This document shows positions 27,122-58,714 of a stretch of DNA of 64,000 bases, piece after piece; position 1 is the stretch's first letter, and each line of letters begins with the position of its first letter. The translations under genes were made by a program, and so were the position numbers. Under the pieces are notes generated by a model that saw only the letters and a program-made list of their open reading frames with translations, searched no databases and was not told where the DNA came from. Source of the stretch: Desulfatiglans anilini DSM 4660 (GTDB lineage Bacteria; Desulfobacterota; DSM-4660; Desulfatiglandales; Desulfatiglandaceae); assembly GCF_000422285.1 (NCBI RefSeq), contig NZ_AULM01000003.1:186001-250000 (forward strand), given 5' to 3'.

Positions 27122-27472
27122 GGGGGCGAACCGGTTTCGACGGGGATAGTTGAAGCTTGGGTTGCATGCCGAGGTTCTGGCTGCTCGTTAAACGGCTGGA
27201 TAAACACAAACGCAGACGATTATTCGTATGCTCTAGCCGCTTAAGGCTAGCGTCCTACCGGTCTTTGCCTGCGTGATCGGATAGGGCGTCGACTAGCGGG
27301 CTAGCTGATCCGGTGCACCTGTGGGCCGGTGAGGCGAAATTTACACGGGTTAGTCTCGGAGTTAGCCTGCATGGTAGCGACCCCCGGGGCGAAATCTCTA
27401 TACCATGCTATGCATGTAGAAGCCTAAGTGGAATATTTTCGGACGGGGGTTCGACTCCCCCCGCCTCCACCA
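27122..27472 (+). ncRNA. ssrA: Transfer-messenger RNA (tmRNA, SsrA)
   Basis: Starts GGGGGCGAACCGGTTTCGAC and ends with GGTTCGACTCCCCCC then GCCTCCACCA, forming a tRNA-Ala-like end. Acceptor strands GGGGGCG (27122-27128) and CGCCTCC pair with G-U at position 3, the alanine identity element. The tag frame ends GCA GAC GAT TAT TCG TAT GCT CTA GCC GCT TAA (27212-27244), giving ADDYSYALAA; the resume codon may lie one or two codons upstream. The one-piece form contains internal pseudoknot segments (for example CTAGCCGCTTAAGGCTAG). Adjacent to smpB. Confidence 0.97.
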
Positions 27473-27485
27473 TTTGAAAAAAGAC

Positions 27486-27543
27486 AACCCGTCTCTCTGG
27501 GGTCATTCTCCGGGGTGACGGGTTTTCTTTTTCCCCTTGTTTC
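27486..27543 (+). terminator. Rho-independent terminator of tmRNA
   Basis: AACCCGTC (27486-27493) pairs with GACGGGTT (27527-27534), followed by TTCTTTTT. The loop is long but contains its own GGGG/CCCC-type pairing. Confidence 0.8.
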
Positions 27544-27834
27544 TAAAGGGTTTGCGCCCGTTTCACATCTTCCAAAGCACCTCTCCGCACCATCGATTCT
27601 CCCCATCTTCCAGCCTTTCTTTCTCTGTTTGGCCCCTGATTCTCTGTTTTCTCCGGACCAAGTCCGAAGCTCGTCCGGAAAGCTACATCCTTGATTGATA
27701 TGGGTTTGCGGCTGATTGCCATTTTGGGCGGTTGTCTTAGGTCATCGTTCGATGCCGCAACCGGACGTTTTTTTCGAAATCGCCCGCCTCGGCCATGAAA
27801 AGAAGCGCGGTCAACTCCGGCTTCCTGCCCCCTA
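27544..27834. other. Chromosome / mobile-element junction region
   Basis: About 290 bases with no convincing gene, between the tmRNA terminator and the first element gene. The left attachment site of the integrated phage should be here or in the tmRNA 3' end. It cannot be pinned down because the right junction lies outside the window. Confidence 0.45.
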
Positions 27835-27864
27835 AAGAAGAAAAGCCGACGCTGATGGTCGGCT
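27835..27864 (-). terminator. Terminator of the serine-recombinase operon
   Basis: Reading the minus strand, AGCCGAC (27864-27858) and GTCGGCT (27850-27844) pair around a seven-base loop and are followed by TTTCTTCTTT. It lies 27 bases after the stop of the last operon gene. Confidence 0.85.
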
Positions 27865-27890
27865 CTCTGGGGCGGTCTCCGGTCCGGTCG

Positions 27891-28313
27891 TCAGTCGGTG
27901 GCAAAGCCGAACTGGCGGCGCTGCTCGGCCCAGTCCTCCGGGAAGGTCTGGGTCAGTTTGGCCAGCGAGAGCCCGTTGGGTTCCTCGCCGTTGATCAGGG
28001 CTTCGACGATGTCGGGGGCCAGGGTCGTCAGCGTGAGAATGCGGGCCACATACGAGCCATCGACGTCGAGGGTACGGGCAAGCTCGCTGATGGACCTGAT
28101 CTGGCCGGATTCGAGGATGTAGGCCCAGGAAAAGGCCCTGCCCAGCGCCTGGAGGACGGCGGACTGCACCGGTTCCTGCGCTCCGGTGATTTCTCCATCC
28201 AGGGCCTGGGGAGCGATGACCGTCTTGCGGCCGCGCATGCGCCGGATCAGCATCGGGATGTGGATCTGCAGGTTGCCGTTGTCGGCAACGGTAATGGTCG
28301 GCTTCATTTTCAT
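27891..28313 (-). CDS. ParB/KorB-like helix-turn-helix protein of the recombinase operon
   Basis: 140 residues. The central part (about 75-110: SISELARTLDVDGSYVARIL) is a KorB/ParB-type helix-turn-helix with the typical S-x-x-ELA...Y/V start. No ParB nuclease box is visible. ATGA overlap with the recombinase, so it is co-translated. Small proteins of this type accompany large serine recombinases in proteobacterial prophages. The likely role is DNA binding, perhaps controlling recombination direction (inference). Confidence 0.75.
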   Translation of the reverse strand: MKMKPTITVADNGNLQIHIPMLIRRMRGRKTVIAPQALDGEITGAQEPVQSAVLQALGRAFSWAYILESGQIRSISELARTLDVDGSYVARILTLTTLAPDIVEALINGEEPNGLSLAKLTQTFPEDWAEQRRQFGFATD

Positions 28314-29896
28314 CGGCTTGTCCTCCGTTCAGTGACTTCGCATGCCAGACCGGCCAGCTCGGCGATGAGCGTTGTCAGTCCGTTGGTGCGCAGCTCCATG
28401 TCGATTCCGGTCTCGCGGATCTCGACCTTATCCACCAGGAGGCGGATGAGGCGATTCCGCTCCACCGGAAAAAGGTCTTCCCAGAAGCCCTCCACATTCT
28501 GGAAGGCCTCCGACACATCCTGTTCCGTGATGCTGTTCCCCTGGTAGGCTCTGCATCGCTCGCTCACATGTGTCAGTTGTTTCGAGAGCTCGACCGCGTG
28601 GCGGTTGACGGTCGTCAGCATCTCGGCCTTGCCCGGCTGATCGTTGCCGGGCCTCATCAGTTCAAGTGCCTGCTCTCGCGCCTGCGACAGCTCAATCTCG
28701 AGCTGGGCTTTCTGCTTGAACAGACGCTCCCTCTCTGCCTGCTCGATGTCCCGGGCGGCGAAGTAGGTCTTGGCCACCAGCGTCGGTGTGCGGAACACCG
28801 CGCTCAACTGCTCGACTACGGCCTGCTCGATGTCCCCGGCGGGAATACGTTTGAGCGGGCACCGGCTCACGGTCCGCTTGCTGTCCTTCTGGCAGATGTA
28901 ATAGGTGTAGTGGCGGCCGTTCTTGCGGGCGTAGGTCGGTCCCATCGAGCATCCGCAGTGGCCGCAGCGGATGACGCCTTTCAGCGGGGCGACCATTTTG
29001 GTTCTGGCCATGGATACCTTGACCGGTTTGTTGTCCTCCAGGATGGCTTGCACCTTGTCCCAGGTCGCCCGGTCGATGATCCCCTCGTGCTCGCCGGGGT
29101 AACTGCGGTCCTTGTGGGCGATCTCGCCGATATAGATCCGGTTGTTGAGCAGCCGGTAGATATGGGCGGTGTTCCATTCGGAGCCCTCACGGACTTTGCC
29201 TTTCTTGGTGGTCCAGGCCTTGGTGCGGTAACCCTGTTCGTTCAGCTCCTGGCCCAGTTTCTTGGCCGAGCCGATCTGGATAAAGCGGCGGAAGATGTAC
29301 TGCACCGTCTTGGCTTCATCAGGGTTGACCAGCAGCTTCTTGTTCTCCCGGTCGACGTCGTATCCGAGGATGGGCACGCCGCCGCAGTATTTCCCCCGGC
29401 GCTTGGCAGCCGCCACCTTGTCTCGGATACGCTCGGCGATGACCTCCCGCTCGTACTGGGCGAAGGTGATCAGGATGCCGAGAAACATTCGGCCGGTGGG
29501 GTCGGTGGTGCTGAAGTGCTGGGTAACCGAGACGAAGCTGACGCCCTTTTCGTTGAAGAGGTCGATCATCTTCATGAAGTCCAGCAGCGAGCGGGACAGT
29601 CGGTCGACCTTGTAGACCACGATCACATCAATCTTCCCGGCGTCGATGTCCGCCAGCAGTCGGCGCAGCCCCGGGCGCTCCATGTTCCCACCCGAGAAAC
29701 CACCATCGTCGTAGCGATCCGGCAGGGCCGTCCAGCCCCGCATCCGTTGGCTCTCGATATAGTGTTCCGCCGACTCCCGTTGGGCATCCAACGAGTTGAA
29801 CTCCTGTTCGAGCCCTTCCTCGTGGCTCTTGCGGGTGTAGATGGCACAGCGCAGGGTCTTGTTCTTGCCCGGCGCGACATTGCTGTTATCAAGCAT
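28310..29896 (-). CDS. Large serine recombinase (integrase)
   Basis: 528 residues from ATG 29896, chosen for AGGGAGG five bases upstream. Resolvase catalytic domain (about 15-160): nucleophile Ser in AIYTRKSHEEG, then VVYKVDRLSRSLLDF and YEREVIAERIRDK. A recombinase domain follows, then a zinc ribbon with CGHCGC and a second Cys pair, a coiled coil, and a C-terminal DNA-binding region. It catalyses site-specific integration/excision of the element. Its gene lies next to ssrA at the element's left end, where an integrase is expected. Confidence 0.95.
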   Translation of the reverse strand: MLDNSNVAPGKNKTLRCAIYTRKSHEEGLEQEFNSLDAQRESAEHYIESQRMRGWTALPDRYDDGGFSGGNMERPGLRRLLADIDAGKIDVIVVYKVDRLSRSLLDFMKMIDLFNEKGVSFVSVTQHFSTTDPTGRMFLGILITFAQYEREVIAERIRDKVAAAKRRGKYCGGVPILGYDVDRENKKLLVNPDEAKTVQYIFRRFIQIGSAKKLGQELNEQGYRTKAWTTKKGKVREGSEWNTAHIYRLLNNRIYIGEIAHKDRSYPGEHEGIIDRATWDKVQAILEDNKPVKVSMARTKMVAPLKGVIRCGHCGCSMGPTYARKNGRHYTYYICQKDSKRTVSRCPLKRIPAGDIEQAVVEQLSAVFRTPTLVAKTYFAARDIEQAERERLFKQKAQLEIELSQAREQALELMRPGNDQPGKAEMLTTVNRHAVELSKQLTHVSERCRAYQGNSITEQDVSEAFQNVEGFWEDLFPVERNRLIRLLVDKVEIRETGIDMELRTNGLTTLIAELAGLACEVTERRTSR

Positions 29897-30413
29897 CCGA
29901 ACCTCCCTCGGCTTTTCTGCCATAAACCTTCTTCAGCCCGAAAAAGACCTTGCCGTTCCAGCGCGTTCCGGTGATCTCCCTGGCCACCGCGCTGAGCGAC
30001 CGGAAGGTGCGGCCTTCGAATTCATAGCCATCGGCAAGGACGGTCACTTCATATCGTCGGTCGTTCCAGACCCGCACCAGTCTGGTTCCGGGCAGGATCG
30101 CCTCGTTCGATTTCCGTTCTTCTGGGATGCGTCGATTGACAGTGGCTACCGGGTCCTCCTTGGCGGCCTGCTGGAGATGGACCTTGGCCTGGTCGGACAG
30201 CCCGCCGTAGAAAAGCTCCTGGATGCGATAGGCCAGCCTCTTGATGAGGAATTGCTTCTTGTACTGGGGCGGCTCTTCGCCGTAGAGGTCGAGCCATTTT
30301 TCCCGGAGCTGCTCCAGGGACATGGATTGCAGCAGGGCCATCTGCCGAAGGACCGAGTTTCGGGTTCGGTCCTGGTTCTTGCCGCCGGTGGCGGCGTTCT
30401 GTAACTCATTCAT
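29889..30413 (-). CDS. DUF2924 family protein
   Basis: 174 residues from ATG 30413 with AAGGAG six bases upstream. Matches DUF2924: QYKKQFLIKRLAYRIQEL, LPGTRLVRVWNDRRYEVTV, and the C-terminal FRSLSAVAREITGTRWNG (a small DNA-binding-like module also found in Mu-type phages). Almost always found before serine recombinases in proteobacterial phages; role unknown, probably a recombination cofactor. Overlaps the recombinase start by 8 bases. Confidence 0.88.
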   Translation of the reverse strand: MNELQNAATGGKNQDRTRNSVLRQMALLQSMSLEQLREKWLDLYGEEPPQYKKQFLIKRLAYRIQELFYGGLSDQAKVHLQQAAKEDPVATVNRRIPEERKSNEAILPGTRLVRVWNDRRYEVTVLADGYEFEGRTFRSLSAVAREITGTRWNGKVFFGLKKVYGRKAEGGSDA

Positions 30414-30447
30414 TTTCAACTCCTTAGTTTGGTTTCCGGACGAGTTG

Positions 30448-30690
30448 TCATGAATGAATGCTCTGTTCCGGCAATGAATCAAGTCCTTCTCCGAGCACAG
30501 GGGAAGAATCTTTGAAAACATCTAACTCATTGCCCACACATGCTTTTTTGGCCTTTCGGCGCAGGACCGCCGTGGCCAGAATCGAGGCGGCTGACTGGAG
30601 CCTCGCCTCACCCGACAGGCGGCCGGGTTTGCCGTTTTCGCCAAGGTCATCCAACCCCGGTACATCATTCATTTCCTGTACATCCAACAT
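30448..30690 (-). CDS. Small protein, first gene of the recombinase operon, 80 aa
   Basis: ATG 30690 with a strong GGAGG six bases upstream. Acidic N-terminus (MLDVQEMNDVPGLDDLG), then a helical stretch with AASILATAVLRRKAKKA. No family recognised. It lies 34 bases before the DUF2924 gene and downstream of the minus-strand copy of the phage promoter motif, so it is probably the leader gene of this operon. Confidence 0.65.
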   Translation of the reverse strand: MLDVQEMNDVPGLDDLGENGKPGRLSGEARLQSAASILATAVLRRKAKKACVGNELDVFKDSSPVLGEGLDSLPEQSIHS

Positions 30691-30842
30691 CGAACACCTC
30701 CGGTGGGACCGGGGGACTGGATGGTGTGGATGCCAGAAAACGGTGGCGGTCGGGATGCGCGTTCGATGGCACCCACAACCACCTCAGCTCCGCCTCTGGT
30801 CGGTTATCTGGTTACATCCGGCTTGAACCGGACTTGCGTTCG

Positions 30843-30874
30843 TTACCTACCGGAGGGATGTGCAAGATGACGGA
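30843..30874 (-). promoter_or_regulatory. Phage bipartite promoter motif, copy 6 (minus strand)
   Basis: Reading the minus strand: TCCGTC (30874-30869), 17 bases, GGTAGGTAA (30851-30843). One mismatch in each half from the five plus-strand copies, same spacer. An inverted repeat (TCCGG / CCGGA, 30832-30817) follows downstream, as at the other copies. Positioned to drive the recombinase operon. Confidence 0.7.
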
Positions 30875-30901
30875 ATCAGACGAGAAGTCCTGTTTTTTTG
30901 A

Positions 30902-30930
30902 TTGACCTGATGTTCATCAGGTCGTATATT
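30902..30930 (+). promoter_or_regulatory. Promoter with embedded palindromic operator for the LexA-like/QueC-like cassette
   Basis: TTGACC (30902-30907), 17 bases, TATATT (30925-30930): a canonical sigma-70-type promoter. A perfect 18-base palindrome, ACCTGATG-TT-CATCAGGT (30905-30922), overlaps the -35 box and fills most of the spacer. This is the classic position for a repressor site, and the first gene of the cassette encodes a LexA-type DNA-binding domain, so autorepression is likely. Confidence 0.82.
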
Positions 30931-30986
30931 TTGTGGTCATAAATTGGGCTTAATCCGCTCAGTGGCTACGACACGGAGCAATCGCC

Positions 30987-31220
30987 ATGGGAAAGAAAAA
31001 GGTATCGGAAATAACCGACCCACAAGCAAACACGCTGAGGGTCATTTGCCAAATCATCGATGAAAAGGGGTTGCCGCCAACGGTGAAAGAATTGTCGGAA
31101 GTCCTTGGTATCAGCCACGCGAGCGCCCACGAGCAGATCGCTCAACTGGTACGGAAAGGCTATCTGAAGAAAGAAGCTCGTAAGGCCCGAAGCATCGTCG
31201 TCATCAGGAGGCCCGAATAA
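30987..31220 (+). CDS. Stand-alone LexA-type DNA-binding domain protein
   Basis: 77 residues. Closely follows the LexA N-terminal winged helix: DPQANTLRVICQIIDEKG, LPPTVKELSEVLGISHASAH and LVRKGYLKKE. The autoproteolytic S24 peptidase half is absent, so this repressor cannot be cleaved via RecA in the usual way. ATG 30987 lies about 50 bases downstream of the predicted transcription start, with CACGGAG upstream. Probable autoregulator of the cassette, binding the palindrome in its own promoter (inference). Confidence 0.85.
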   Translation: MGKKKVSEITDPQANTLRVICQIIDEKGLPPTVKELSEVLGISHASAHEQIAQLVRKGYLKKEARKARSIVVIRRPE

Positions 31221-31253
31221 CGATGCTGGGTCGCGAAAAATAAGGAGATCGAC

Positions 31254-32042
31254 ATGGGGCACGTCAGACTTGGAAGCCTTCCGAGGTCGAGGGCATGGAA
31301 AGAGGTGGTCGGCCTGATCACGGCCGGTGCCGACGTGTCCCAAATCGCAAACGCAACAATCCGGGCAGCCGATAAAGCATTCACCTTCGTGCTCAACGAT
31401 GAGGGGTTCACCGAGGCGGTCTGGTTGATGACGCAGCTCGCCATTGCCGCAAAAAAGGAGAACCTCGGCGAGCATCTCCAATCCCTCGGCGTCAACCTGC
31501 CGCAGGATACATCCCTTCCCGATCTTGCCGCCGCAGTCTCCGAGGCCCTGGATAACAAATTGGAGTCCAACGGTGGCCGATCCGACCTCGGTGAAATGTC
31601 TCAGCGTGCATTGGTCGGAGCCCTGGTAGAGCACATCTCACCGAAACTGCCGTCTCTCTTCGCCCCCGGGCCAGATGATGTTCGGGCCGCACTGGCAGCG
31701 CTCGGGAAAAAGCGGGAGTTCGGAGAGCTGTCGCGGACTTTCTTCGCCAAGCTGACCAACGAGAGCATGAACTACTTCCTCTCAAAAACGCTGGCTACCC
31801 ATCTGGGTGAGGGCCAGCGCTTTGCCACCATGAATGAAATGGGACAATTCGAGAAGGCTCTGAACACGCACTGTAAAGAGGCGTCCCTGATCGTCGAGCA
31901 GTTTTCAGCAGATTGGTTTTCGAAGCACAGGTACGAAGAAGGTGGTGACATCTCCAGGGAGTCTTCCAATGGCTTCGCCTCTTACGCGCTGAAAAAGATG
32001 AAGGACGAGCTAAAAGAAGGAGCGCGAGCCGATGCAAGATAA
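31254..32042 (+). CDS. Unknown protein of the QueC-like cassette, 262 aa
   Basis: ATG 31254 with AAGGAG six bases upstream. Begins MGHVRLGSLPRSRAWKEVV, so after Met removal the N-terminus is glycine. The rest is mostly helical: QLAIAAKKENLGEHLQSLG, DDVRAALAALGKK, an aromatic cluster in ESMNYFLSKTLATHLG, and a lysine-rich C-terminus. No catalytic motif or membrane span is visible. It overlaps the QueC-like gene by 11 bases, implying a stoichiometric partner. By size and position it recalls QatB in Qat defence systems, but I cannot establish homology. It may be the substrate of the QueC-like enzyme (inference). Confidence 0.8.
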   Translation: MGHVRLGSLPRSRAWKEVVGLITAGADVSQIANATIRAADKAFTFVLNDEGFTEAVWLMTQLAIAAKKENLGEHLQSLGVNLPQDTSLPDLAAAVSEALDNKLESNGGRSDLGEMSQRALVGALVEHISPKLPSLFAPGPDDVRAALAALGKKREFGELSRTFFAKLTNESMNYFLSKTLATHLGEGQRFATMNEMGQFEKALNTHCKEASLIVEQFSADWFSKHRYEEGGDISRESSNGFASYALKKMKDELKEGARADAR

Positions 32043-34134
32043 ACGATATATCATCTGTGGGAACGCACCGACTGATGGGATTGAAGAAAATCCTGACCGT
32101 GATCTGCGCCTGCGTCTTTGGGGTAAGGATGGGCCGGACAAGATCACCCTACGCATTGAAGACATCCACAAAAAGATGAGCAAGGACGTGCCTGATTCTT
32201 TCCAGGATCTGCTCGAAATCGCCACCTACGTTTACAGTGCCGATCAGGCCATCCCACGAGGGGCCGACGACGTCGATTCTTTTGGCCATGGCTGGCGCAG
32301 GGATCTGCACTTCATCATCCCGGTGCGGAAGCCAGATTTTTGGAACGGAGACGATATCCACCAGGCGCTGCGCTCCACGCTTGGTTTCTTGTCTGATGAC
32401 AACTATCACTTCGAGTTCGTCAAACTGAAAGAGGCTCAGGCATTCCAGGGATATCTGAAATTTGATGATGACGGACGGCTCTTCGGCTATCCGGAACAGG
32501 TAGTGATGTTTTCAGGTGGGCTGGACTCGCTGGCGGGAGCCATCGATGAAGTTCTGAATGAAAAACACAAGGTCGTCCTTGTTACCCACAAGTCGACACC
32601 GAAGCTCAACACGCGCCACCGGCGACTGGAAAAGATGATTGCCGACAAGGCTGGGGAAAACGCCCCGCTACACATCGGCGTCCGGGTCAACAAGAACAAG
32701 GGGCTGAACTACGAGTACACCCAGCGCAGCCGATCCTTCCTCTATGTGTCTATCGGGGCGACCATCGCAAAAATGCTCAATCTGAAAAGCGTCCGTTTTT
32801 ACGAAAACGGGGTCATCAGTTTGAATCTGCCGGTCTGCGCTCAGGTAGTCGGAGGCCGGGCAACACGCACCACCCACCCCAGGGTGATCCGAGGCTTTCA
32901 GGAAATCATCAGCCTGGTGGCTGGCGAACCGTTCACGATTGAGAATCCCTACATCTGGAAAACCAAGGCCGGTGTTATCGAGGTGATCACCAAGGCCGGA
33001 TGCCAGGACATGATCGCGGCATCGACCACCTGCACCCATACCTGGGAGATGACCAATCACCATACGCATTGCGGAACGTGTTCGCAGTGCATCGACAGGC
33101 GTTTTGCCATGATTGCGGCAAAAGCGGATCAGCATGACCCCGTGGAAGCCTATAAGGCCGATATCTTCACCCAAAGCAGAAGCAAGGACGAGGACAAGAT
33201 CATGGCTGCCGCGTACCTGGAGCGAGCCAACCAGGTCCGTGATCAGGATGACATCACCCAGTTTATCGCTCGATTCAGCGAGGTCAGTCGGGTCTTCCGC
33301 TACTTGAATGGGAACCCCGGAAGCGTGGCCCAGAAGGTCTATGACCTTTACAAACGCCACGCCAAGGAGGTCTGCGAAGCGATGGACACCATGGTCGCCC
33401 GCAACATCACGGCCATCCGTCAGCGCACCTTGCCGGGAGACTGCTTGCTTCGGACGGTCTATGAATCGGGATCGGTGATCTCTGTCCCAGCTATTCCGGT
33501 CGAGCAGAAGCAGCCGGACAACTACTTCAGGAAGCGCGGGGGTGTCTGGGCCGCACGCTTTAACGGCAATGCCGAGGTGCTCGTGACGGGTGTCGACAAA
33601 GGAGCCGAGTACATCAACTTCCTTCTGGCGAGGCCCAACAAGGAAACCTCGGTCTACGAGATCGTCTGCGGGTTCGCCATCAATACCTGCAACACGTTTC
33701 TGAACTCTGATGAAACCGAAGACGGTTTTCAGGTCACCCAGGGGGTTCCGTTGGGCGATACCGGCTTCGTCGCCGACCGCAAGGCTATCGAGCAGTACCG
33801 GGAGGCGGCTCACGATCTTCTTCGAGAAATTGAAGACGCACGAGCAGAAAACAACGATGCCGAGATTCAGCGGCTTGAAGAAGAAATGGCAAAGGTGACC
33901 ACAGCGATCAACGAGGCTGTTGGCTTGGGTGGCAAACTCCGGAAATCCAACGACAAGCGAAAGAACGTCCGTGACGCCTTCCGGAACGCCGTAAACCGGG
34001 CCATCAAGTATCTTGAGAAGTACGACAAGCCGCTGGCTGCCCACCTGAAGGAATCCATCAAGTGCGGCAACGAACCGGTCTACCGGACCGAAGAGGAGAT
34101 CGTTTGGGAGGTCCGTCCGATAGTCAACGAATGA
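32032..34134 (+). CDS. QueC-like PP-loop protein with large C-terminal extension (candidate defence enzyme)
   Basis: 700 residues, about three times the length of QueC. An N-terminal ~155-residue region is followed by a PP-loop ATPase: SGGLDS at 161-166, then VLVTHKSTPKLN. A QueC-style zinc site (about 333-352) carries Cys in TTCTHTWE and HCGTCSQC. The C-terminal part has a segment reading GGVWAARFNG and KGAEYINFLL (about 500-535), a domain type I associate with bacterial signalling/regulatory proteins, then a coiled coil (about 585-640). QueC makes preQ0 using ATP and ammonia; QueC-like proteins also occur in Qat and type IV CBASS defence. No other queuosine genes are nearby, so a defence or modification role is more likely than preQ0 supply. 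Confidence 0.8.
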   Translation: MQDKRYIICGNAPTDGIEENPDRDLRLRLWGKDGPDKITLRIEDIHKKMSKDVPDSFQDLLEIATYVYSADQAIPRGADDVDSFGHGWRRDLHFIIPVRKPDFWNGDDIHQALRSTLGFLSDDNYHFEFVKLKEAQAFQGYLKFDDDGRLFGYPEQVVMFSGGLDSLAGAIDEVLNEKHKVVLVTHKSTPKLNTRHRRLEKMIADKAGENAPLHIGVRVNKNKGLNYEYTQRSRSFLYVSIGATIAKMLNLKSVRFYENGVISLNLPVCAQVVGGRATRTTHPRVIRGFQEIISLVAGEPFTIENPYIWKTKAGVIEVITKAGCQDMIAASTTCTHTWEMTNHHTHCGTCSQCIDRRFAMIAAKADQHDPVEAYKADIFTQSRSKDEDKIMAAAYLERANQVRDQDDITQFIARFSEVSRVFRYLNGNPGSVAQKVYDLYKRHAKEVCEAMDTMVARNITAIRQRTLPGDCLLRTVYESGSVISVPAIPVEQKQPDNYFRKRGGVWAARFNGNAEVLVTGVDKGAEYINFLLARPNKETSVYEIVCGFAINTCNTFLNSDETEDGFQVTQGVPLGDTGFVADRKAIEQYREAAHDLLREIEDARAENNDAEIQRLEEEMAKVTTAINEAVGLGGKLRKSNDKRKNVRDAFRNAVNRAIKYLEKYDKPLAAHLKESIKCGNEPVYRTEEEIVWEVRPIVNE

Positions 34135-34198
34135 CCCGGGACCACCCAGGAAGAAAAAACTAAAAAAAATTTCCGCTACGCCAAATGTAGCCATTGCG

Positions 34199-34247
34199 AC
34201 GCCGGATGTAGCGCCTTCCCCAATGAAGGCGCGATCCGGCGTTTTTT
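34199..34247 (+). terminator. Strong Rho-independent terminator of the QueC-like cassette
   Basis: ACGCCGGAT (34199-34207) pairs with ATCCGGCGT (34234-34242); an inner stem GCGCCTT / AAGGCGC stacks inside, and TTTTTT follows. It closes the cassette as an independent transcription unit and sits between it and the next phage gene. Confidence 0.93.
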
Positions 34248-34307
34248 ATTGGTCAGCACAGGGTTGGCCACCGGGCGTGCCAGAACTTCCGAACAAGGAG
34301 ACTGGCA

Positions 34308-34634
34308 GTGGCACAAGTCAACAAAGCACATCTCACCCCACCGAAGCGGCGACTCATCGAGTTGATGCAGGACATCAACTTCGGCCGCATCTCCAACATT
34401 CCGGTCCGCGACGGCGAGCCGGAACTCACCCCTGACACGGTCATCGAGCGCGAGATCAAGCTGGGCGGACAGAGCGGTCCCCGGCCCGAGCGCGACCAGG
34501 ATGACTTCATCCTCAAGCAAGAGGTCGTGGCGCTGCTGGAGCACCTCGCGCAGATGGGCAGCGGAAAAGTCTGCCTGCTCGAGATCAAGCACGGTCTCCC
34601 GTTCCTGATGCGCATCGAGGAACGGGCAGCCTGA
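34308..34634 (+). CDS. Phage protein of unknown function, 108 aa
   Basis: GTG 34308 (AAGGAGAC upstream). Hydrophilic, with the segments LMQDINFGRISNIPVRDGEP and KVCLLEIKHGLPFLMRIEE. No family recognised. It lies after the cassette terminator and before the sigma-like gene. The roughly 195 bases after it hold no convincing gene. Confidence 0.65.
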   Translation: MAQVNKAHLTPPKRRLIELMQDINFGRISNIPVRDGEPELTPDTVIEREIKLGGQSGPRPERDQDDFILKQEVVALLEHLAQMGSGKVCLLEIKHGLPFLMRIEERAA

Positions 34635-34805
34635 ACACGTAACGACCTGAACCCTTAGACACTGGACAACAAGCTGGACGCATGGCGGAGGCTGTTGTGG
34701 GTGTCGCCGAGCCGAATACGGCAATTGGCGGCGTACCTGCGACCCCTTCGCCCACGCGACAGCTTTGTCCTGTGATCTGGCCCGTGCCGACACCCACGCG
34801 GACCT

Positions 34806-34824
34806 CCTCCTCGCTCCGAGGAGG
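34806..34824 (+). promoter_or_regulatory. Hairpin masking the ribosome-binding site of the phage sigma gene
   Basis: CCTCCTCG (34806-34813) pairs perfectly with CGAGGAGG (34817-34824) around a three-base loop. The 3' arm contains the Shine-Dalgarno AGGAGG, five bases before the ATG at 34830. If formed, translation of the sigma-like protein would be blocked until the stem opens. Confidence 0.7.
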
Positions 34825-34829
34825 CCCCG

Positions 34830-35414
34830 ATGGTTTCACAGAATTCTTACGACGGCATCGACAAGTATGCCGCCGACCTGATTCGGCACAAAGCACGTCA
34901 ACTCGTAGGCAAGGCCGGATTCACCGAGGACGACAGACCCGACCTCGAACAGGAACTGATGATCGATCTGCTGCAGCGGATGCGGCATTTCAATCCAGCC
35001 AAGGCCAAGAAGACCACCTTCATGGCCCGAATCGTCGAACGTCACATCTCCACCATCCTGGAGGCCCGTTTCGCCCAATGCCGGGACTGGCGGCTCTGCC
35101 AAACCTCACTCAACGAACCCCTCGACAACTGCGAAGGCGACACCACCGAACGGATCGACTTCCTGGACAGCGAGGGCTCCCTGGGAAGCGGCACCCGCGA
35201 GACAAGGGAGCGTCTCGCCCATGAGATCCGCATGGATCTCGACCGGGCCATCGCCTCGCTACCGGAGGAGCTCCGGGATCTGTGCGTGCGCCTACACGAC
35301 AGCACCATGGCCGAAATCGCCCGGGAAATGGGCATTCCCAGAACCACCCTCTACGACCGGCTGAGCAAGCTGCGGGAGGCGTTCATCGAGGCTGGCCTGA
35401 CGGACTACCTGTGA
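34830..35414 (+). CDS. Phage-encoded sigma-70-family factor
   Basis: 194 residues. Region 2-like segment at about 30-75 (DRPDLEQELMIDLLQRMRHF, then KTTFMARIVERHISTILEAR). Region 4 helix-turn-helix at about 145-185 (SLPEELRDLCVRL, then MAEIAREMGIPRTTLYDRLSKLR). No region 1.1 or 3 and no anti-sigma partner visible. It would redirect host RNA polymerase to phage promoters. A copy of the TCCGAC-N17-GGTAAGTAA motif begins three bases after its stop, and five more occur in the element; I infer that these are its targets. Ribosome site sequestered in a hairpin. Confidence 0.88.
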   Translation: MVSQNSYDGIDKYAADLIRHKARQLVGKAGFTEDDRPDLEQELMIDLLQRMRHFNPAKAKKTTFMARIVERHISTILEARFAQCRDWRLCQTSLNEPLDNCEGDTTERIDFLDSEGSLGSGTRETRERLAHEIRMDLDRAIASLPEELRDLCVRLHDSTMAEIAREMGIPRTTLYDRLSKLREAFIEAGLTDYL

Positions 35415-35416
35415 TC

Positions 35417-35448
35417 TCCGACGCATCGACTCCGGCTCCGGTAAGTAA
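35417..35448 (+). promoter_or_regulatory. Phage bipartite promoter motif, copy 1
   Basis: TCCGAC (35417-35422), 17 bases, GGTAAGTAA (35440-35448); followed by the hairpin GCCGCA-TGG-TGCGGC (35456-35470). Starts three bases after the sigma gene stop and 102 bases before the first gene of the replication operon. Confidence 0.78.
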
Positions 35449-35518
35449 GCACCGTGCCGCATGGTGCGGCTATCCGGGGCCTCGGAAATCAGAACCTGAA
35501 CAAAAGAGGAGTTCAACC

Positions 35519-35857
35519 ATGACTCACGACACCTACAAGTACCGTTTTGACGAGTCGGTCCCGGCCCAGGAACTGGAAGACACTTTCATGCTGGCGATGC
35601 TGGCTGTCGAAAGCCTGCATGGCCGTTCCCGTGTGCGGATGGAGAGCCGGTTCAATCTGGACAAGGCCCGACGCACCTGCGTGATCGACGCCTCCACCGA
35701 TGTCGGCAGCGACCTCGCCCGCATCTTCACCGGCTTCGCCACCAAGGAATACGGCGAACGCTCGGTCCTGATCGAACGTACCCAGCCGTCGGGTTGCGCC
35801 TGTGCCTCAAAGCATCGCGCAGCGCCCGCCGCTGCCGAAGCGGGGGTGGCGGTATGA
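35519..35857 (+). CDS. Phage protein of unknown function, 112 aa
   Basis: ATG 35519 with AAGAGGAG upstream; first gene of the replication operon. Contains MLAVESLHGRSRVRMESRF and CVIDASTDVGSDLARIF. The last ~20 residues are Cys/Ala-rich (SGCACASKHRAA). Overlaps the next gene by ATGA. No family recognised. Confidence 0.7.
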   Translation: MTHDTYKYRFDESVPAQELEDTFMLAMLAVESLHGRSRVRMESRFNLDKARRTCVIDASTDVGSDLARIFTGFATKEYGERSVLIERTQPSGCACASKHRAAPAAAEAGVAV

Positions 35858-36870
35858 GCGAGCTGATGACCACCACCTATTCCATGTGGCGGCTGTTCCG
35901 CAACTGCCGCATGGCCTGCAAGTGGCGCTATATCGACGAGCTGGTACCACTCGAGCGCGACCCCAATCTGGCCTTCGGCTCGGTCATTCACGACTGCCTG
36001 GAGTGCTGGCACGGCGAGCGGGATCTGGCCAAGGTCCTCGACCACATCGACCGGACATATCCGAACCGGGCGCAGGACGATCATCAACAGGCCGACTGGC
36101 ATCTCGCCCGAGCCATGATGAGCGCCTATGCGGAACACTACCCGGCCGAAGAATTCGAGGTCGTCGCGCTCGAAAAGACCTTCGAAGGTCCCATCGTCAA
36201 CCCGGCGACAGGCGCGACCTCGCGCAGTTTCATTCTCGCCGGAAAGGTGGACGGCATCGTCCGTCAAGATGGTCAGTATTTCCTGCTGGAACACAAAACC
36301 GCTTCACAGATCGACGCCAGCTACCTGGAGCGGCTGTGGACCGATTTCCAGATCATCCTCTACGCCTGGTACCTGGAGCAGACCCTCGGCATCACGGTCA
36401 GCGGCATCATCTACAACGTTCTGGTCAAGGCCAAGCTGCGCCAGGGCAAGGGTGAGACCGAGGCCGAATTCGAGGCCCGCCGGGCGGAGCTGATCGCCAA
36501 GTCGAAAACCGGCAAGAGCAGCGCCAAGCGCAAGCTGCCGGAGGACGACGACACCTTCCAGCAGCGGCTCCAGGAGAAGTACCTCGAGCCGGGCATGTTC
36601 CATCGCGAGGTGCTCTACATCTCCCGCGACCAGTTCGAGGAACTGCGGGCGGAGCTGTGGGAGCTCTCCAAGGCCATGCTCGACGCCCGTCGGCGCAACA
36701 TCTTCTACCGCAACACCAGCTACTGCTTCCAGTACGGAAGGCCCTGCGCCTACTTCCAGCTCTGCCGCTCGGGCGGCAACCCCAACGTCATTGAAAACCA
36801 TTTCCAACGGATCGCCCCGCACGAAGAGCTGCGGGACGGAGCCGGTGAAGACGCCGCTCCGGTGTTTTGA
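35854..36870 (+). CDS. PD-(D/E)XK nuclease with Cas4/AddB-like FeS cysteines
   Basis: 338 residues from ATG 35854. RecB-family nuclease core: early helix motif FGSVIHDCLE with its His, then ILAGKVDGIV (Asp) and FLLEHKTASQ (E-x-K). One cysteine group lies near the N-terminus (FRNCRMACKWRY) and three cysteines near the C-terminus (YCFQYGRPCAYFQLC). This one-plus-three arrangement is typical of [4Fe-4S]-stapled nucleases such as Cas4 and AddB. Predicted 5'-end processing exonuclease feeding the recombination module downstream. Confidence 0.85.
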   Translation: MSELMTTTYSMWRLFRNCRMACKWRYIDELVPLERDPNLAFGSVIHDCLECWHGERDLAKVLDHIDRTYPNRAQDDHQQADWHLARAMMSAYAEHYPAEEFEVVALEKTFEGPIVNPATGATSRSFILAGKVDGIVRQDGQYFLLEHKTASQIDASYLERLWTDFQIILYAWYLEQTLGITVSGIIYNVLVKAKLRQGKGETEAEFEARRAELIAKSKTGKSSAKRKLPEDDDTFQQRLQEKYLEPGMFHREVLYISRDQFEELRAELWELSKAMLDARRRNIFYRNTSYCFQYGRPCAYFQLCRSGGNPNVIENHFQRIAPHEELRDGAGEDAAPVF

Positions 36871-36896
36871 AATCCCAACCATAAGGAGACGAAGCC

Positions 36897-37667
36897 ATGC
36901 TTCCCAAGACCAAAAGCAAACCCAAACACACGCTCTCGGACCTCACCGCCCTGGTGTACGGCCCGAGCAAGATCGGCAAGAGCACCTGGTGCTCCAAGGC
37001 CGATGACGCACTGTTCCTGGCGACCGAGCCGGGCCTGAACGCCCTGGAGGTGTTCCAGACCCCGATCACCTGCTGGGACGACCTTCTGCAGGCCTGCGCG
37101 GAAATCGCCGAGGGCAAGCACGAGTTCAAGACCATCGTCGTCGACACGGTGGATAACGCCTACAAGATGTGCTCGGACTATGTCTGCAAGAAATTCAAGA
37201 TCGAGCACGAGTCCGACCTGGGCTACGGCAAAGGCTACGCGCTGATCAACAACGAGTTCCAGCGCGTCATCAACAAGCTCGCCTTCCTGCCCTATGGGCT
37301 GATCCTGATCTCCCACTCCCAGGAGCGGGACATCGAGACCCGGACCGGCAAACACACCCGCATCGTGCCGACGCTTCCGGAGAAGGCGCGGAAGCTGGTC
37401 ACCGGTCTGGTGGACCTGATCCTGTTCTGCGACCTGGACATGAAAACCGGCGAGGACGGCAAGCCGGTATGGCAGCGCGTGATGCGCACCAAGCCCAGTC
37501 CCAACTACGACGCCGGTGACCGCACCGGTCGCCTCCCCGAAGTCATCCCCCTCGATTTTTCGAGCTTCATGAAAGCCTTCAACAACACGGCAGCCGGAGC
37601 TGCGGCGAGTGCCGCCCGGCCGAAGCCGGAGCCGACCGCGAGTGCGGCGGCGAAACCTCAACAGTAA
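36897..37667 (+). CDS. Sak4-like RecA-fold ATPase (phage recombination annealing/loader)
   Basis: 256 residues. Walker A YGPSKIGKSTWCSKA (about 21-35), Walker B-like FKTIVVDTVDN, sensor region YGLILISHSQE. Matches the phage nucleotide-binding (Sak4) family, single-domain RecA homologues that work with a phage SSB. The C-terminal tail is Ala/Pro-rich. Next gene is a DUF669 protein, the usual partner. Confidence 0.88.
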   Translation: MLPKTKSKPKHTLSDLTALVYGPSKIGKSTWCSKADDALFLATEPGLNALEVFQTPITCWDDLLQACAEIAEGKHEFKTIVVDTVDNAYKMCSDYVCKKFKIEHESDLGYGKGYALINNEFQRVINKLAFLPYGLILISHSQERDIETRTGKHTRIVPTLPEKARKLVTGLVDLILFCDLDMKTGEDGKPVWQRVMRTKPSPNYDAGDRTGRLPEVIPLDFSSFMKAFNNTAAGAAASAARPKPEPTASAAAKPQQ

Positions 37668-37679
37668 GGAGATCCGACC

Positions 37680-38153
37680 ATGGAACACTACGAAAACCAG
37701 TCCAACAGCAACCTCGACCTGGCGCAGTTCGACGACGCCTTCGAAACCGCCGAAGTCGAGGAACGCGAGTTCGAGGCCGTCCCCGACGGCAAGTACCAGG
37801 TCAACGTCGACCGGGTCGAATTGACCCGCGCCCAGACCTCGGGAAACCCCATGCTCAAGTGGACCCTGCGCATTCTCGCGCCGACCCACAAGGGCCGTCT
37901 GCTTTGGCGCAACAACGTCATGGCCAGCAACGAGAACATCAAGTGGCTCAAGCAGGACCTCTACACCTGCGGGCTGCAGCTTCAGAAGCTCTCCGATCTG
38001 CCGGGCCACCTCGAGCAGCTTCTCAACATCAAGCTGGAGGTGACCAAGCGCACTCGCGGTGAAAACGAGAACATTTACTTCAACCGTCGCATTGTCATGG
38101 CCGACGATGCCGGGGCTCCCGGCGCGGCGATGGACGACATGATCCCGTTCTGA
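37680..38153 (+). CDS. DUF669 protein (phage ssDNA-binding-like)
   Basis: 157 residues. DUF669 core: FEAVPDGKYQVNVDRVEL, GNPMLKWTLRILAPTHKGR, and a C-terminal acidic tip typical of single-strand-binding proteins (ending DDMIPF). Commonly next to sak4 and ERCC4 genes. Predicted to coat ssDNA during phage recombination/replication. Ribosome site AAGGAGATC. Confidence 0.88.
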   Translation: MEHYENQSNSNLDLAQFDDAFETAEVEEREFEAVPDGKYQVNVDRVELTRAQTSGNPMLKWTLRILAPTHKGRLLWRNNVMASNENIKWLKQDLYTCGLQLQKLSDLPGHLEQLLNIKLEVTKRTRGENENIYFNRRIVMADDAGAPGAAMDDMIPF

Positions 38154-47832: not shown

Positions 47833-48747
47833 TCAGAGGCGTTCGAGGGCTTCCTCGAGCTGGCCGTCCACGAGGTGGGTGTAGATCTGGGTGGTGGACA
47901 CGTCGCGATGCCCCAATGCCCGCTGCACCACGAGCAGGTCGTTGGTCGCGCCGTAGAGGTGGGTGGCGAATGTATGCCGCAGCCCGTGCGGCGTCAGTTC
48001 CTTTTCGATCCCGGCCTTCCGCAGCCAGTGGGCGAGCCGGTTGGCTATCTGCCGCTGGCAGAGTCTGCCGTCCCGGTTCGACAGGAACAGGGCTTCCATT
48101 TCTGGGCGGCCGTGTCGACGACGCTCGGCCAGGTAACGGCGCAGCAATGTGCGGAGGTCGGTCTTGATGAACTTGACCTGCGGCACATTCCCCTTGGCCC
48201 GCACCCGCAGATGCTTGGCGTCGAGGTCGATGTCATCCATGTCGAGCGCGGCCAGCTCGCCAAGCCTGATCCCGGTGCCCAGCAGCACCTCGATCATGGC
48301 GCGGTCGCGCAGCGCGGAGAACTCGGTCCGCCCCTTGAGCTCCTTGAGCAGACGTTTCTTTTCGGCGGCGGTCAGGAAAACCGGCAGCTTTCTCGGCAAC
48401 CGATGCATGCGGATGGACCGGGCCGGATTGTCATCGACCACGCCAGCCTCGACAGCCCAGGCGAAAAAGGCCCGCACCGCCGCCTTCATCCGATGGAGCG
48501 AGGCCGCCGAGCGTGGGCCTCGCTCACTCTCGGTGACCGCATCAGCGGAGAACACCTGGTCGAGGAGCCCGGCCGTGACTTCCCGGCAGACGATGCCCGG
48601 GGCCAACTCCCCGGCCACGCGGGCCACCAGGGCGAGATCCCGGCGGTATGCGGCTATGGTCGCCGGGGAGCGTCCTTCGGCCGACAGGCGGGCACAGAAC
48701 GCCTCCGTTGCGCCCGTCAGGTCGAGGTCAGCCGTTCGGTTGCTCAT
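47833..48747 (-). CDS. Tyrosine recombinase (XerD-like)
   Basis: 304 residues. SAM-like core-binding domain (about 10-100) and catalytic domain with Arg in GTGIRLGELAALD, Lys in RAKGN, His-x-x-Arg in HGLRHTFATHLY, His in LGHRDVSTTQIYTH and the nucleophile Tyr in that same segment. A second recombinase in the element besides the serine integrase; it may resolve multimers or act on the repeats beside it. Overlaps the upstream core-binding-only gene by 20 bases. Confidence 0.93.
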   Translation of the reverse strand: MSNRTADLDLTGATEAFCARLSAEGRSPATIAAYRRDLALVARVAGELAPGIVCREVTAGLLDQVFSADAVTESERGPRSAASLHRMKAAVRAFFAWAVEAGVVDDNPARSIRMHRLPRKLPVFLTAAEKKRLLKELKGRTEFSALRDRAMIEVLLGTGIRLGELAALDMDDIDLDAKHLRVRAKGNVPQVKFIKTDLRTLLRRYLAERRRHGRPEMEALFLSNRDGRLCQRQIANRLAHWLRKAGIEKELTPHGLRHTFATHLYGATNDLLVVQRALGHRDVSTTQIYTHLVDGQLEEALERL

Positions 48748-51655: not shown

Positions 51656-53164
51656 GTGGAAAGCACCGCCAATCAGGACGAACAACCCGAAAGCCTGGAC
51701 ACCACCGGCTTTGTCATCGCGCCGCTGGCCGCAGCGGCCGCGCTCGACTCGGCCGCTTTCAGCAAGGTCAACGCCACCGAAGCGATTCCGGCCACCTGGG
51801 AAGAACGCGCCCGCAAGGCCTGGGAATACTACGTCGAGGAGCCGCTGGTGAAGAACTGCGTCAACTCCTGGCGCACCTTCGCTGTGGGCGACGAGATCAA
51901 GATCACCAGCGACGACGAGACCCTCAAGGAGCAGGCTCTGGAGGCCGCCTGGCGGCTGAACGTCTCGCAGTTCATCAAGGACATGGTTCTTCAGCTCCTG
52001 GTGAAAGGTGACGCCATCGGATTCAAGCGCTTCACCAAGTCCGGCCAGGACATCGAGGAGCTGGTCTGCGTCAACCCGGTTTCGGTCAAGGTCAAATACG
52101 CCCAGGGAGAACTGATCGAGGCCCGGCAATTTCCCGAGGACACCCCCGGCGGCGGGGAATCCATCCCGCTGCCCGTCGAGCAGGTGGTCCACCTCAAATG
52201 GGATGCTCCGGCCTTTTCGCCCCGGGGCAACTCCCTCGTGCTTCCAGCCTTTCAAGCCATCGAACTGCTGCGCGACTACCGCCGGGCCGAACAGGCCATC
52301 GCCAAGCGCTGGGCCACGCCGTTCCGCCTGCTCAAGGTGGGTGGCGCGTTCGGCCAGAAGATGGTGATGCCGGACCAGCGGATGCTCGAACAGGTCCGCG
52401 ACATGGTCAACAAGATGGACATGAAAAGCGGCCTGGTGGTCCCGTTCTACGTCAACGTCGAAACCCACGGCACCGACGGCCAGGTCCTCAACGTCGAGGA
52501 CAAGGTCAAGGAGGTGAAGGAAGACATCGTGGTGGCCCTGGGTCTGTCACGCTCGCTGGTGACCGGCGACGGTCCGAACTTCGCCACCGCCTCGGTGAGC
52601 ATGCAGAAGATGATGGTCATGATCCGCGAGATCAAACAGGCCGCTCGCAAGCTCCTCGACTGGGTGTTCGACGACTGGATGGAACTTAACGGCCACGGCG
52701 ACAAGAGCATCCAGTTCATCTTCAACGACCTCGACCCCAGCGACGCGGTCGATTTCAAGAAGCTCCTCATCGAACTCTACGACCGCAAACTCATCAGTCG
52801 CTCCAGCCTCCAGCTCAAGATGGACCTGGACCCGGATATCGAGGCCGCCAACCGCGAGACCGAACGCAAACAGATCGACCTGATGGACGAGAAACAGGTG
52901 AAGCCGGTGGTGGATATGGTCGTCTCCGGCATCCTCAGCGTGCCTCGTGCTCGGAAGATGCTCGGGATTCCGGCCGAGGACGATGAACCCACGGCGGAGG
53001 CGGCATTAGTCTGGTCGGGCGACCTGGAGTCCACCGGCATTGCTGCCGTGTGCGACGAGTGCAGCCACTTCATTGCTGACACCAACCACTGCCGGGTCCA
53101 CAACAGCGAGCGCACCTTCGACGCCCCGGCCTGTCGTTTCATCGACCGCCGGGAGCCCCGCTGA
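51656..53164 (+). CDS. Phage portal protein with C-terminal Cys-rich module
   Basis: 502 residues from GTG 51656 (GAGAGGATCAC upstream). Portal features include WEYYVEEPLVKNCVNSW, LLVKGDAIGFKRF, the long wing/stem region, and DPSDAVDFKKLLIELYDRKL near the clip. The last ~45 residues form a putative metal-binding tail, CDECSHFIADTNHC then the C-terminal ACRF, not normally part of portals. It forms the dodecameric DNA gate of the capsid. Confidence 0.88.
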   Translation: MESTANQDEQPESLDTTGFVIAPLAAAAALDSAAFSKVNATEAIPATWEERARKAWEYYVEEPLVKNCVNSWRTFAVGDEIKITSDDETLKEQALEAAWRLNVSQFIKDMVLQLLVKGDAIGFKRFTKSGQDIEELVCVNPVSVKVKYAQGELIEARQFPEDTPGGGESIPLPVEQVVHLKWDAPAFSPRGNSLVLPAFQAIELLRDYRRAEQAIAKRWATPFRLLKVGGAFGQKMVMPDQRMLEQVRDMVNKMDMKSGLVVPFYVNVETHGTDGQVLNVEDKVKEVKEDIVVALGLSRSLVTGDGPNFATASVSMQKMMVMIREIKQAARKLLDWVFDDWMELNGHGDKSIQFIFNDLDPSDAVDFKKLLIELYDRKLISRSSLQLKMDLDPDIEAANRETERKQIDLMDEKQVKPVVDMVVSGILSVPRARKMLGIPAEDDEPTAEAALVWSGDLESTGIAAVCDECSHFIADTNHCRVHNSERTFDAPACRFIDRREPR

Positions 53165-58658: not shown

Positions 58659-58714
58659 CCGCTGAACGCTCCCCGCAGGTCGCGGAGAGCACAGCAAACT
58701 GACCGGAGACGTTG

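What the first reader, a model, noticed from the sequence alone, without database searches (positions are those of the whole stretch)
31254..31310. Partner protein has an N-terminal Met-Gly, fitting a deazaguanylation-type substrate
The 262-residue protein begins MGHVRLG, so Met removal would expose glycine. From memory (not verifiable here), the QueC-like Cap9 of type IV CBASS attaches a deazaguanine to an N-terminal glycine of its partner. The co-translated pair here could work in the same way. The HTH protein also starts MG.
Basis: inference. Interest (0 to 1): 0.62.

Follow-up and report, generated by a model that had tools for sequence, protein, structure and literature searches.

The report
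Phage-borne QatBC-like pair, invariant glycine
A prophage carries two overlapping genes that resemble the core pair of a known bacterial anti-phage system, and the exposed glycine at the start of the smaller protein is unchanged in every relative found, which fits it being the spot its enzyme partner chemically tags.

Summary
ORF 31254-32042 starts MGHVRLGSLPRSRAW behind a good ribosome-binding site and overlaps the 700-aa QueC-like gene by 11 nt. One MG is weak evidence, but Gly2 is kept in all 90 relatives read (65 distinct; 28/28 below 80% identity; the farthest at 21-25% identity), using all four glycine codons. Gly2 of the HTH protein is not conserved.

The enzyme is QatC-like, not Cap9-like: SGGLDS, the Thr278/Thr280 pair that replaces Cap9's Tyr/Asp, and the zinc cysteines. 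The 262-aa protein matches no known family by sequence, but its predicted fold matches QatB of the solved QatB-QatC complex (Z 12.5, 210 of 215 residues; first unrelated entry 4.8). QatB Gly2 is essential for defence in published work.

So this is a QatBC-like pair without qatA or qatD, in a clade of its own. Its enzyme carries an extra C-terminal module: winged-helix-like here, a DpnII/MboI-type nuclease in Leptospira and Prevotellaceae relatives. Several chromosomal relatives sit beside restriction-modification or DrmD-like genes.

N-terminal glycine modification is the likeliest role of Gly2 (about 0.65). That the group is a deazaguanine is unproven, even for canonical QatC. New variant of a known kind.

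The parts
31254..32042 (+). QatB-like protein, 262 aa, the putative substrate
   Evidence: ORF; predicted fold matches QatB 9y01_A, Z 12.5, 210/215 aligned; always paired with a QatC-like gene
31254..31298 (+). N-terminal motif M-G-H-x-R-x-G-x-L-P-x-x-x-x-W (residues 1-15); Gly2 is the putative acceptor
   Evidence: G2, H3, W15 in 28/28 representatives below 80% identity; alignments A3 and A6
31242..31247 (+). ribosome-binding site AAGGAG, six bases before the ATG
   Evidence: sequence; kept in close relatives
32032..34134 (+). QatC-like enzyme, 700 aa, overlapping the QatB-like gene by 11 nt
   Evidence: PADLOC QatC 1.9e-53; solved QatC chains 4.1e-30 and 7.5e-21
32512..32529 (+). SGGLDS pyrophosphate-binding loop (residues 161-166)
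   Evidence: S161, G162, G163, D165 and S166 invariant with six canonical QatC
32863..32871 (+). Thr278-Arg-Thr280, the QatC-type pair in place of Cap9/QueC Tyr/Asp
   Evidence: Thr280 invariant, position 278 Thr or Ser (PMC13279940)
33031..33090 (+). zinc-site cysteines C334, C347, C350, C353
   Evidence: invariant with canonical QatC
33514..34095 (+). extra C-terminal module (residues 495-688), probably an OmpR/PhoB-type winged helix with a coiled-coil insert
   Evidence: model of moderate confidence; about 90 residues align with many response-regulator DNA-binding domains at Z 6-8; no sequence-profile support
30987..31220 (+). LexA-type HTH protein, 77 aa, upstream neighbour; Gly2 not conserved
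   Evidence: Pfam LexA_DNA_bind 5.3e-13; MS in 49 and MG in 21 relatives
29889..30521 (-). DUF2924 protein of the integration module (neighbour)
   Evidence: Pfam PF11149 1.2e-52
28310..29923 (-). large serine integrase of the element (neighbour)
   Evidence: Pfam Resolvase/Recombinase, PHROG integrase 6e-129
27122..27472 (+). tmRNA gene; its 3' end is the probable insertion site of the element
   Evidence: ARAGORN; near-identical elements elsewhere begin at 27409-27442

Best explanation
The two genes are a QatBC-like anti-phage pair carried by a prophage. The QatC-like enzyme uses ATP to activate a small carboxylate and joins it to the N-terminal glycine of the QatB-like protein after methionine removal. 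The short N-terminal segment MGHxRxGxLPxxxxW enters the enzyme's active site while the helical body docks on the enzyme. The modified complex then acts against incoming phage. The module fused to the enzyme's C-terminus (winged-helix-like here, a nuclease in some relatives) supplies the DNA-directed or effector step, in place of separate qatA and qatD genes. Shown here: the pair and its coupling, the QatC active-site residues, the QatB-like fold (predicted), the invariance of Gly2, the absence of qatA/qatD in the sequence held, the swapped C-terminal modules, and defence genes beside several relatives. Inferred: complex formation, glycine modification, the anti-phage role, and the role of the C-terminal module. 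Unknown: the chemical group; a deazaguanine is possible, but the base-reading residues differ from Cap9.
For: QatC identity: PADLOC 1.9e-53, solved QatC chains 4e-30, shared SGGxDS, Thr280, HP, Lys312 and zinc cysteines with six canonical QatC. QatB identity: AlphaFold2 model pLDDT 85, pTM 0.86, VIA-align Z 12.5 over 210 of 215 residues of P. aeruginosa QatB, first unrelated entry Z 4.8; same N-terminal layout as short-tailed QatB such as MGTSKGYLPPTGYLW. Gly2 invariant down to 21-25% identity with all four codons. Coupled gene pair in all intact relatives. Published work: QatBC alone protects, QatB G2D abolishes defence, the N-terminus is modelled into the QatC active site (PMC13279940). Defence setting: relatives beside type I RM, type III RM, DrmD-like and ResIII genes; a DpnII-MboI nuclease domain fused to QatC in L036 and L077.
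Against: No sequence similarity to the QatB core by profile comparison; the Foldseek E-value of the match is only 1.2, and helical folds can match by chance. Position 3 is His, not the Thr-Ser of QatB MGTS. The ordered body starts about 50 residues earlier than in P. aeruginosa QatB, and whether so short a tail reaches the active site was not modelled. QatC activity has never been reconstituted, so the modification is unproven even in the reference system. The winged-helix reading lacks sequence support.
Confidence: 0.65

Rival explanations
1. True deazaguanylation as in type IV CBASS: the enzyme joins 7-carboxy-7-deazaguanine to Gly2 exactly as Cap9 does. This is a narrower form of the best explanation.
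For: Same enzyme family and same kind of N-terminal glycine acceptor; the host genome has a true QueC (246.6 bits) and a QueE-like protein (72 bits, below that model's cut-off), so the precursor may be present.
Against: The Tyr/Asp that read the deazaguanine base in Cap9 and QueC are Thr/Thr here; in QatC, putting Tyr/Asp back abolished defence (PMC13279940). CDG was added to QatBC crystals but not seen.
Confidence: 0.3
2. Docking without modification: Gly2 and the first 15 residues are conserved because they plug into the enzyme's active site or pack in the complex, for example as an inhibitory plug, and no group is attached.
For: The whole N-terminal block (G2, H3, G7, L9, W15) is conserved, not Gly2 alone, as an interface would be; QatC modification has not been shown experimentally.
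Against: The ATP-site residues of the enzyme are also invariant, and in QatC the SGGxDS serines are needed for defence, which points to catalysis.
Confidence: 0.2
3. A phage-internal function: the pair controls lysogeny, integration or gene expression of the phage through the DNA-binding C-terminal module, and is not a defence system.
For: It lies beside the integrase, DUF2924 and a LexA-type HTH gene, and serine recombinase and DUF2924-like neighbours recur beside relatives of 33-38% identity; the C-terminal module resembles transcription-factor DNA-binding domains.
Against: Relatives in Bacteroidota and on a Leptospira plasmid lack that setting and several sit beside restriction-modification, DrmD-like or ResIII genes; two relatives carry a restriction-type nuclease instead of the winged helix.
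Confidence: 0.12
4. Metal binding: the mature N-terminus Gly-His (Gly-His-Lys in some relatives) binds copper or another metal, and Gly2/His3 are conserved for that reason.
For: His3 is as invariant as Gly2, unlike QatB (Thr) and the CD-NTase MGGS motif. Gly-His-Lys is a known copper-binding peptide (own knowledge).
Against: Does not explain the constant partnership with a QatC-like enzyme or the conserved Gly7, Leu9 and Trp15.
Confidence: 0.04

Closest known systems
QatB-QatC core of the qatABCD anti-phage system (PMC13279940; PDB 9y01, 9y02, 9vlk, 9zee)
   Same: QatC active-site loop, Thr280 (Thr278 or Ser), zinc cysteines and N-terminal extension; partner with the QatB fold directly upstream; N-terminal Met-Gly with a Pro and Trp a few residues on; translational coupling.
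   Different: No qatA or qatD; N-terminal motif MGHxRxG instead of MGTS; extra C-terminal module of roughly 120-230 residues on the enzyme; separate clade with support 100/100; below NCBIfam's QatC cut-off; mostly phage-borne.
QueC family Cluster 2 (PF06508) of PMC13329287
   Same: The Cluster 2 motifs are present: D71(x)4R76 with W88xR90, D123xYxxxF129, R232xR234xxxY238, E258NG260, H282-P283, P306(x)4TK312.
   Different: The spacing between R76 and W88 is longer (11 instead of 7). The text read does not describe this clade or its C-terminal modules; it reports qatA and qatD beside about a third of Cluster 2 members.
Cap9 with its CD-NTase, type IV CBASS (PMC11996544)
   Same: A QueC-family enzyme beside a partner with an exposed N-terminal glycine.
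   Different: Partner has the QatB fold, not that of a CD-NTase; Thr/Thr instead of the Tyr/Asp base-reading pair; enzyme 700 aa instead of about 185.

Membership tests
QatC | QueC-type ATP-site loop SGGxDS | tested here: met
   SGGLDS at residues 161-166; the motif positions are invariant with six canonical QatC
QatC | Thr278/Thr280 in place of the Cap9/QueC Tyr/Asp | tested here: met
   Thr278 and Thr280 present; Thr280 invariant, 278 is Thr or Ser in relatives
QatC | zinc-binding cysteines | tested here: met
   C334, C347, C350, C353 invariant
QatC | score above NCBIfam's curated QatC cut-off (NF041925, equivalog) | tested here: not met
   206 bits against a cut-off of 280; hence called QatC-like
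QatB | QatB alpha-helical fold | tested here: met
   predicted model against 9y01_A: Z 12.5, rmsd 3.7, 210/215 aligned, first unrelated entry Z 4.8; Foldseek E-value alone is not significant
QatB | sequence similarity to the QatB core | tested here: not met
   hhalign probability 2.7; no PADLOC or NCBIfam hit; hence called QatB-like
QatB | N-terminal MGTS motif | tested here: not met
   Met-Gly kept, but followed by His-x instead of Thr-Ser in every relative
qatABCD system | qatA (KAP ATPase) and qatD (TatD nuclease) in the operon | tested here: not met
   tblastn of five QatA and five QatD finds none in the window or family loci held at that point, only in the canonical controls
Cap9 / type IV CBASS | CD-NTase partner | tested here: not met
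   partner has no CD-NTase match in Pfam or PADLOC and has the QatB fold
Cap9 / type IV CBASS | Tyr/Asp base-reading pair in the QueC domain | tested here: not met
   Thr/Thr instead
Cap9 / type IV CBASS | Cap10 (tRNA transglycosylase-like) in the operon | not tested
   no dedicated search was made
N-terminally deazaguanylated protein | N-terminal glycine exposed after Met removal | tested here: met
   Gly2 in 90/90 relatives; Met removal before Gly is general knowledge, not measured
N-terminally deazaguanylated protein | 7-deazaguanine attached to the N-terminal glycine | not testable with these tools
   needs mass spectrometry

The most novel reading that the evidence does not exclude
A widespread, often phage-borne two-gene branch of Qat-type immunity in which the QatC enzyme has its effector built in as an exchangeable C-terminal module (winged helix, other HTH-like ends, or a restriction-type nuclease), and in which the partner's Gly-His N-terminus receives a group that differs from the CBASS deazaguanine.
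Probability: 0.35. Interest if true: 0.75.

Novelty: new variant of a known kind. Interest (0 to 1): 0.55.

Why it matters
What canonical QatC attaches to QatB, and how that stops phage, is an open question in the current literature (PMC13279940). This clade offers a natural two-gene version with a very short substrate tail and a fused C-terminal module whose identity changes between relatives. A nuclease fused to the QatC-like enzyme in some members would tie the modification chemistry to DNA cleavage and make the downstream step directly testable. It also shows temperate phages carrying such a pair, probably against competing phages.

Tried and rejected
Profile-profile comparison of the 262-aa family with six QatB proteins found no core similarity, so the homology claim rests on fold and gene order. 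A PDB profile search with the family gave a stray best hit, EFCAB6 at 4.7e-5, judged a chance helical match because no such chain stands out in the fold search. The HTH protein as a second substrate was rejected. A winged helix in the C-terminal module was not confirmed by sequence profiles; it rests on weak Pfam hits and fold. Membership in Cap9/CBASS was rejected on two tested features. A DNA pattern for the MGHER-type start found nothing in viral contigs. No record of the annotated phage collection encodes the 262-aa protein. A complex of the two proteins was not predicted. Paper searches for a described QatBC-only or C-terminally fused QatC system found none, but most subscription papers and preprints are not in that library.

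Full report
What is there. The ORF at 31254-32042 (+) begins MGHVRLGSLPRSRAWKEVV and has 262 residues; AAGGAG lies six bases upstream of its ATG. The 700-residue QueC-like ORF starts at 32032, so the two genes overlap by 11 nt. They lie in a prophage: large serine integrase (28310-29923, -), DUF2924 protein, LexA-type HTH protein, and further along a primase, terminase, portal and major head protein. Near-identical copies (about 96% DNA identity) in other genomes begin at window positions 27409-27442, inside the 3' end of the tmRNA gene (27122-27472), which marks the probable insertion site.

Is Gly2 more than chance? One MG start is weak evidence. All 90 relatives read have Gly2 (65 distinct proteins). 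After clustering, 28 of 28 representatives below 80% identity and 19 of 19 below 60% have Gly2, His3 and Trp15, and Gly2 is written with all four glycine codons. The most distant members, in Prevotellaceae (23%), on a Leptospira noguchii plasmid (21-23%) and in genomes sampled from the phylum of the Prevotellaceae member, still start MGH. In a 31-sequence alignment the invariant positions are concentrated in the first 15 residues (p = 6e-4). The first two large scans used patterns that do not contain Gly2 and the genome searches were by profile; the scan did use an MGH pattern and its extra loci are partly selected. The HTH protein fails the same test: 49 relatives start MS and 21 MG.

What the enzyme is. 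PADLOC calls it QatC (1.9e-53); NCBIfam's QatC model matches at 206 bits, below its cut-off of 280; solved QatC chains match at 4.1e-30 and 7.5e-21. In an alignment with six QatC proteins from qatABCD operons, the SGGxDS loop, ENG, Thr280, HP, Lys312 and the four zinc cysteines are shared by all. Position 278 is Thr, or Ser in the Prevotellaceae/Leptospira branch. According to PMC13279940 these two Thr take the place of the Tyr and Asp with which Cap9 and QueC read the deazaguanine base, and replacing them by Tyr/Asp abolishes defence. The enzyme is therefore QatC-like, not Cap9-like. A tree of the core puts the ten members tested in one clade apart from six qatABCD QatC proteins, support 100/100; branches are long and the root is unknown.

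What the partner is. It has no significant match in Pfam, PADLOC, NCBIfam or PDB sequences, and profile comparison with QatB fails. The AlphaFold2 model is confident (pLDDT 85, pTM 0.86): a short low-confidence start, then twelve helices. VIA-align 2 matches it to P. aeruginosa QatB from the solved QatB-QatC complex at Z 12.5 (rmsd 3.7, 210 of 215 residues, model 8-257 on chain 64-287); the second entry, the same complex with ATP, scores 12.3 and the third, unrelated, 4.8. Foldseek gives TM 0.53/0.62 and probability 0.85 but E 1.2. Short-tailed QatB proteins of qatABCD operons have the same N-terminal layout, for example MGTSKGYLPPTGYLW in Planococcus. Together with the gene order this makes a QatB-like identity likely.

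What it probably does. In published work QatBC alone protects E. coli against some phages, QatB G2D abolishes defence, and models place the QatB N-terminus in the QatC active site, but the reaction could not be reconstituted and is called unresolved. By analogy, the enzyme here probably joins a group to Gly2. The nature of the group is open; the host has QueC and a QueE-like protein, so a deazaguanine precursor may exist.

What differs. No QatA or QatD relative is found in the window or in the family loci held (L001-L077 and L086-L098), and none was recognised among the ORFs of L108-L115 (read by eye). The enzyme has an extra C-terminal module. Here it is probably an OmpR/PhoB-type winged helix with a coiled-coil insert: about 90 residues each align with SaeR, NsrR, PhoB, CovR, KdpE and others at Z 6-8, on a model of moderate confidence, without sequence-profile support. 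Several distant relatives end in LRQQVxRLR...GYRINP, which resembles the same fold (inference). In the Prevotellaceae and Leptospira relatives the C-terminus is instead a DpnII-MboI restriction-nuclease domain above Pfam's cut-off.

Role. Most copies are in viral contigs or beside integrase genes. Relatives outside recognised phage settings lie next to a type I RM pair (L108), a type III methyltransferase (L109), a DrmD-like helicase (L111) and a ResIII protein (L036). This supports defence over a purely phage-internal function. Frequency is low: 2 of 297, 6 of 395 and 3 of 398 genomes in three phylum samples, each sample including the genome it was centred on.

Verdict. Observation confirmed. 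The idea of an N-terminal glycine substrate is supported; the Cap9 parallel is replaced by QatBC; the deazaguanine is unproven. A new variant of a known kind.

Noticed in passing
window 27409-38042; loci L010, L034, L001, L009, L008: The element's left part is about 96% identical in DNA in genomes assigned to Desulfosarcina, Desulfobulbaceae, a Syntrophus MAG and an Oxalobacter MAG (the last may be a binning error), and begins inside the tmRNA 3' end: a recent, wide spread.
   Followed up: partly
L036:3908-5770, L077:6780-8642: QatC-like enzymes fused to a DpnII-MboI-type restriction nuclease domain in a Prevotellaceae MAG and on a Leptospira noguchii plasmid.
   Followed up: partly
L112:4967-6934: The C-terminus of this QatC-like protein holds a stretch (IPVELKNK) that looks like a PD-(D/E)XK nuclease motif; Pfam does not name it.
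   Followed up: no
L091, L092, L093, L095, L113: Serine recombinase genes, with DUF2924-like or small regulator-like ORFs, recur beside distant relatives of the pair, suggesting an old association with one integration module.
   Followed up: partly
window 47833-48747 (-): A tyrosine integrase (PHROG 4e-49) lies inside the phage region in addition to the serine integrase at 28310-29923.
   Followed up: no
window 58712-61111 (+): A 799-aa ORF whose N-terminal part looks by eye like a D12-class adenine methyltransferase, joined to other sequence, within the phage head genes.
   Followed up: no
window 53164-57753 (+): A 1529-aa ORF just after the portal gene, long for a phage head-assembly protein.
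   Followed up: no
L035:6001-6264: In Comamonas granuli the 262-aa frame is cut to 87 residues while the downstream QatC-like ORF stays open (712 aa).
   Followed up: no
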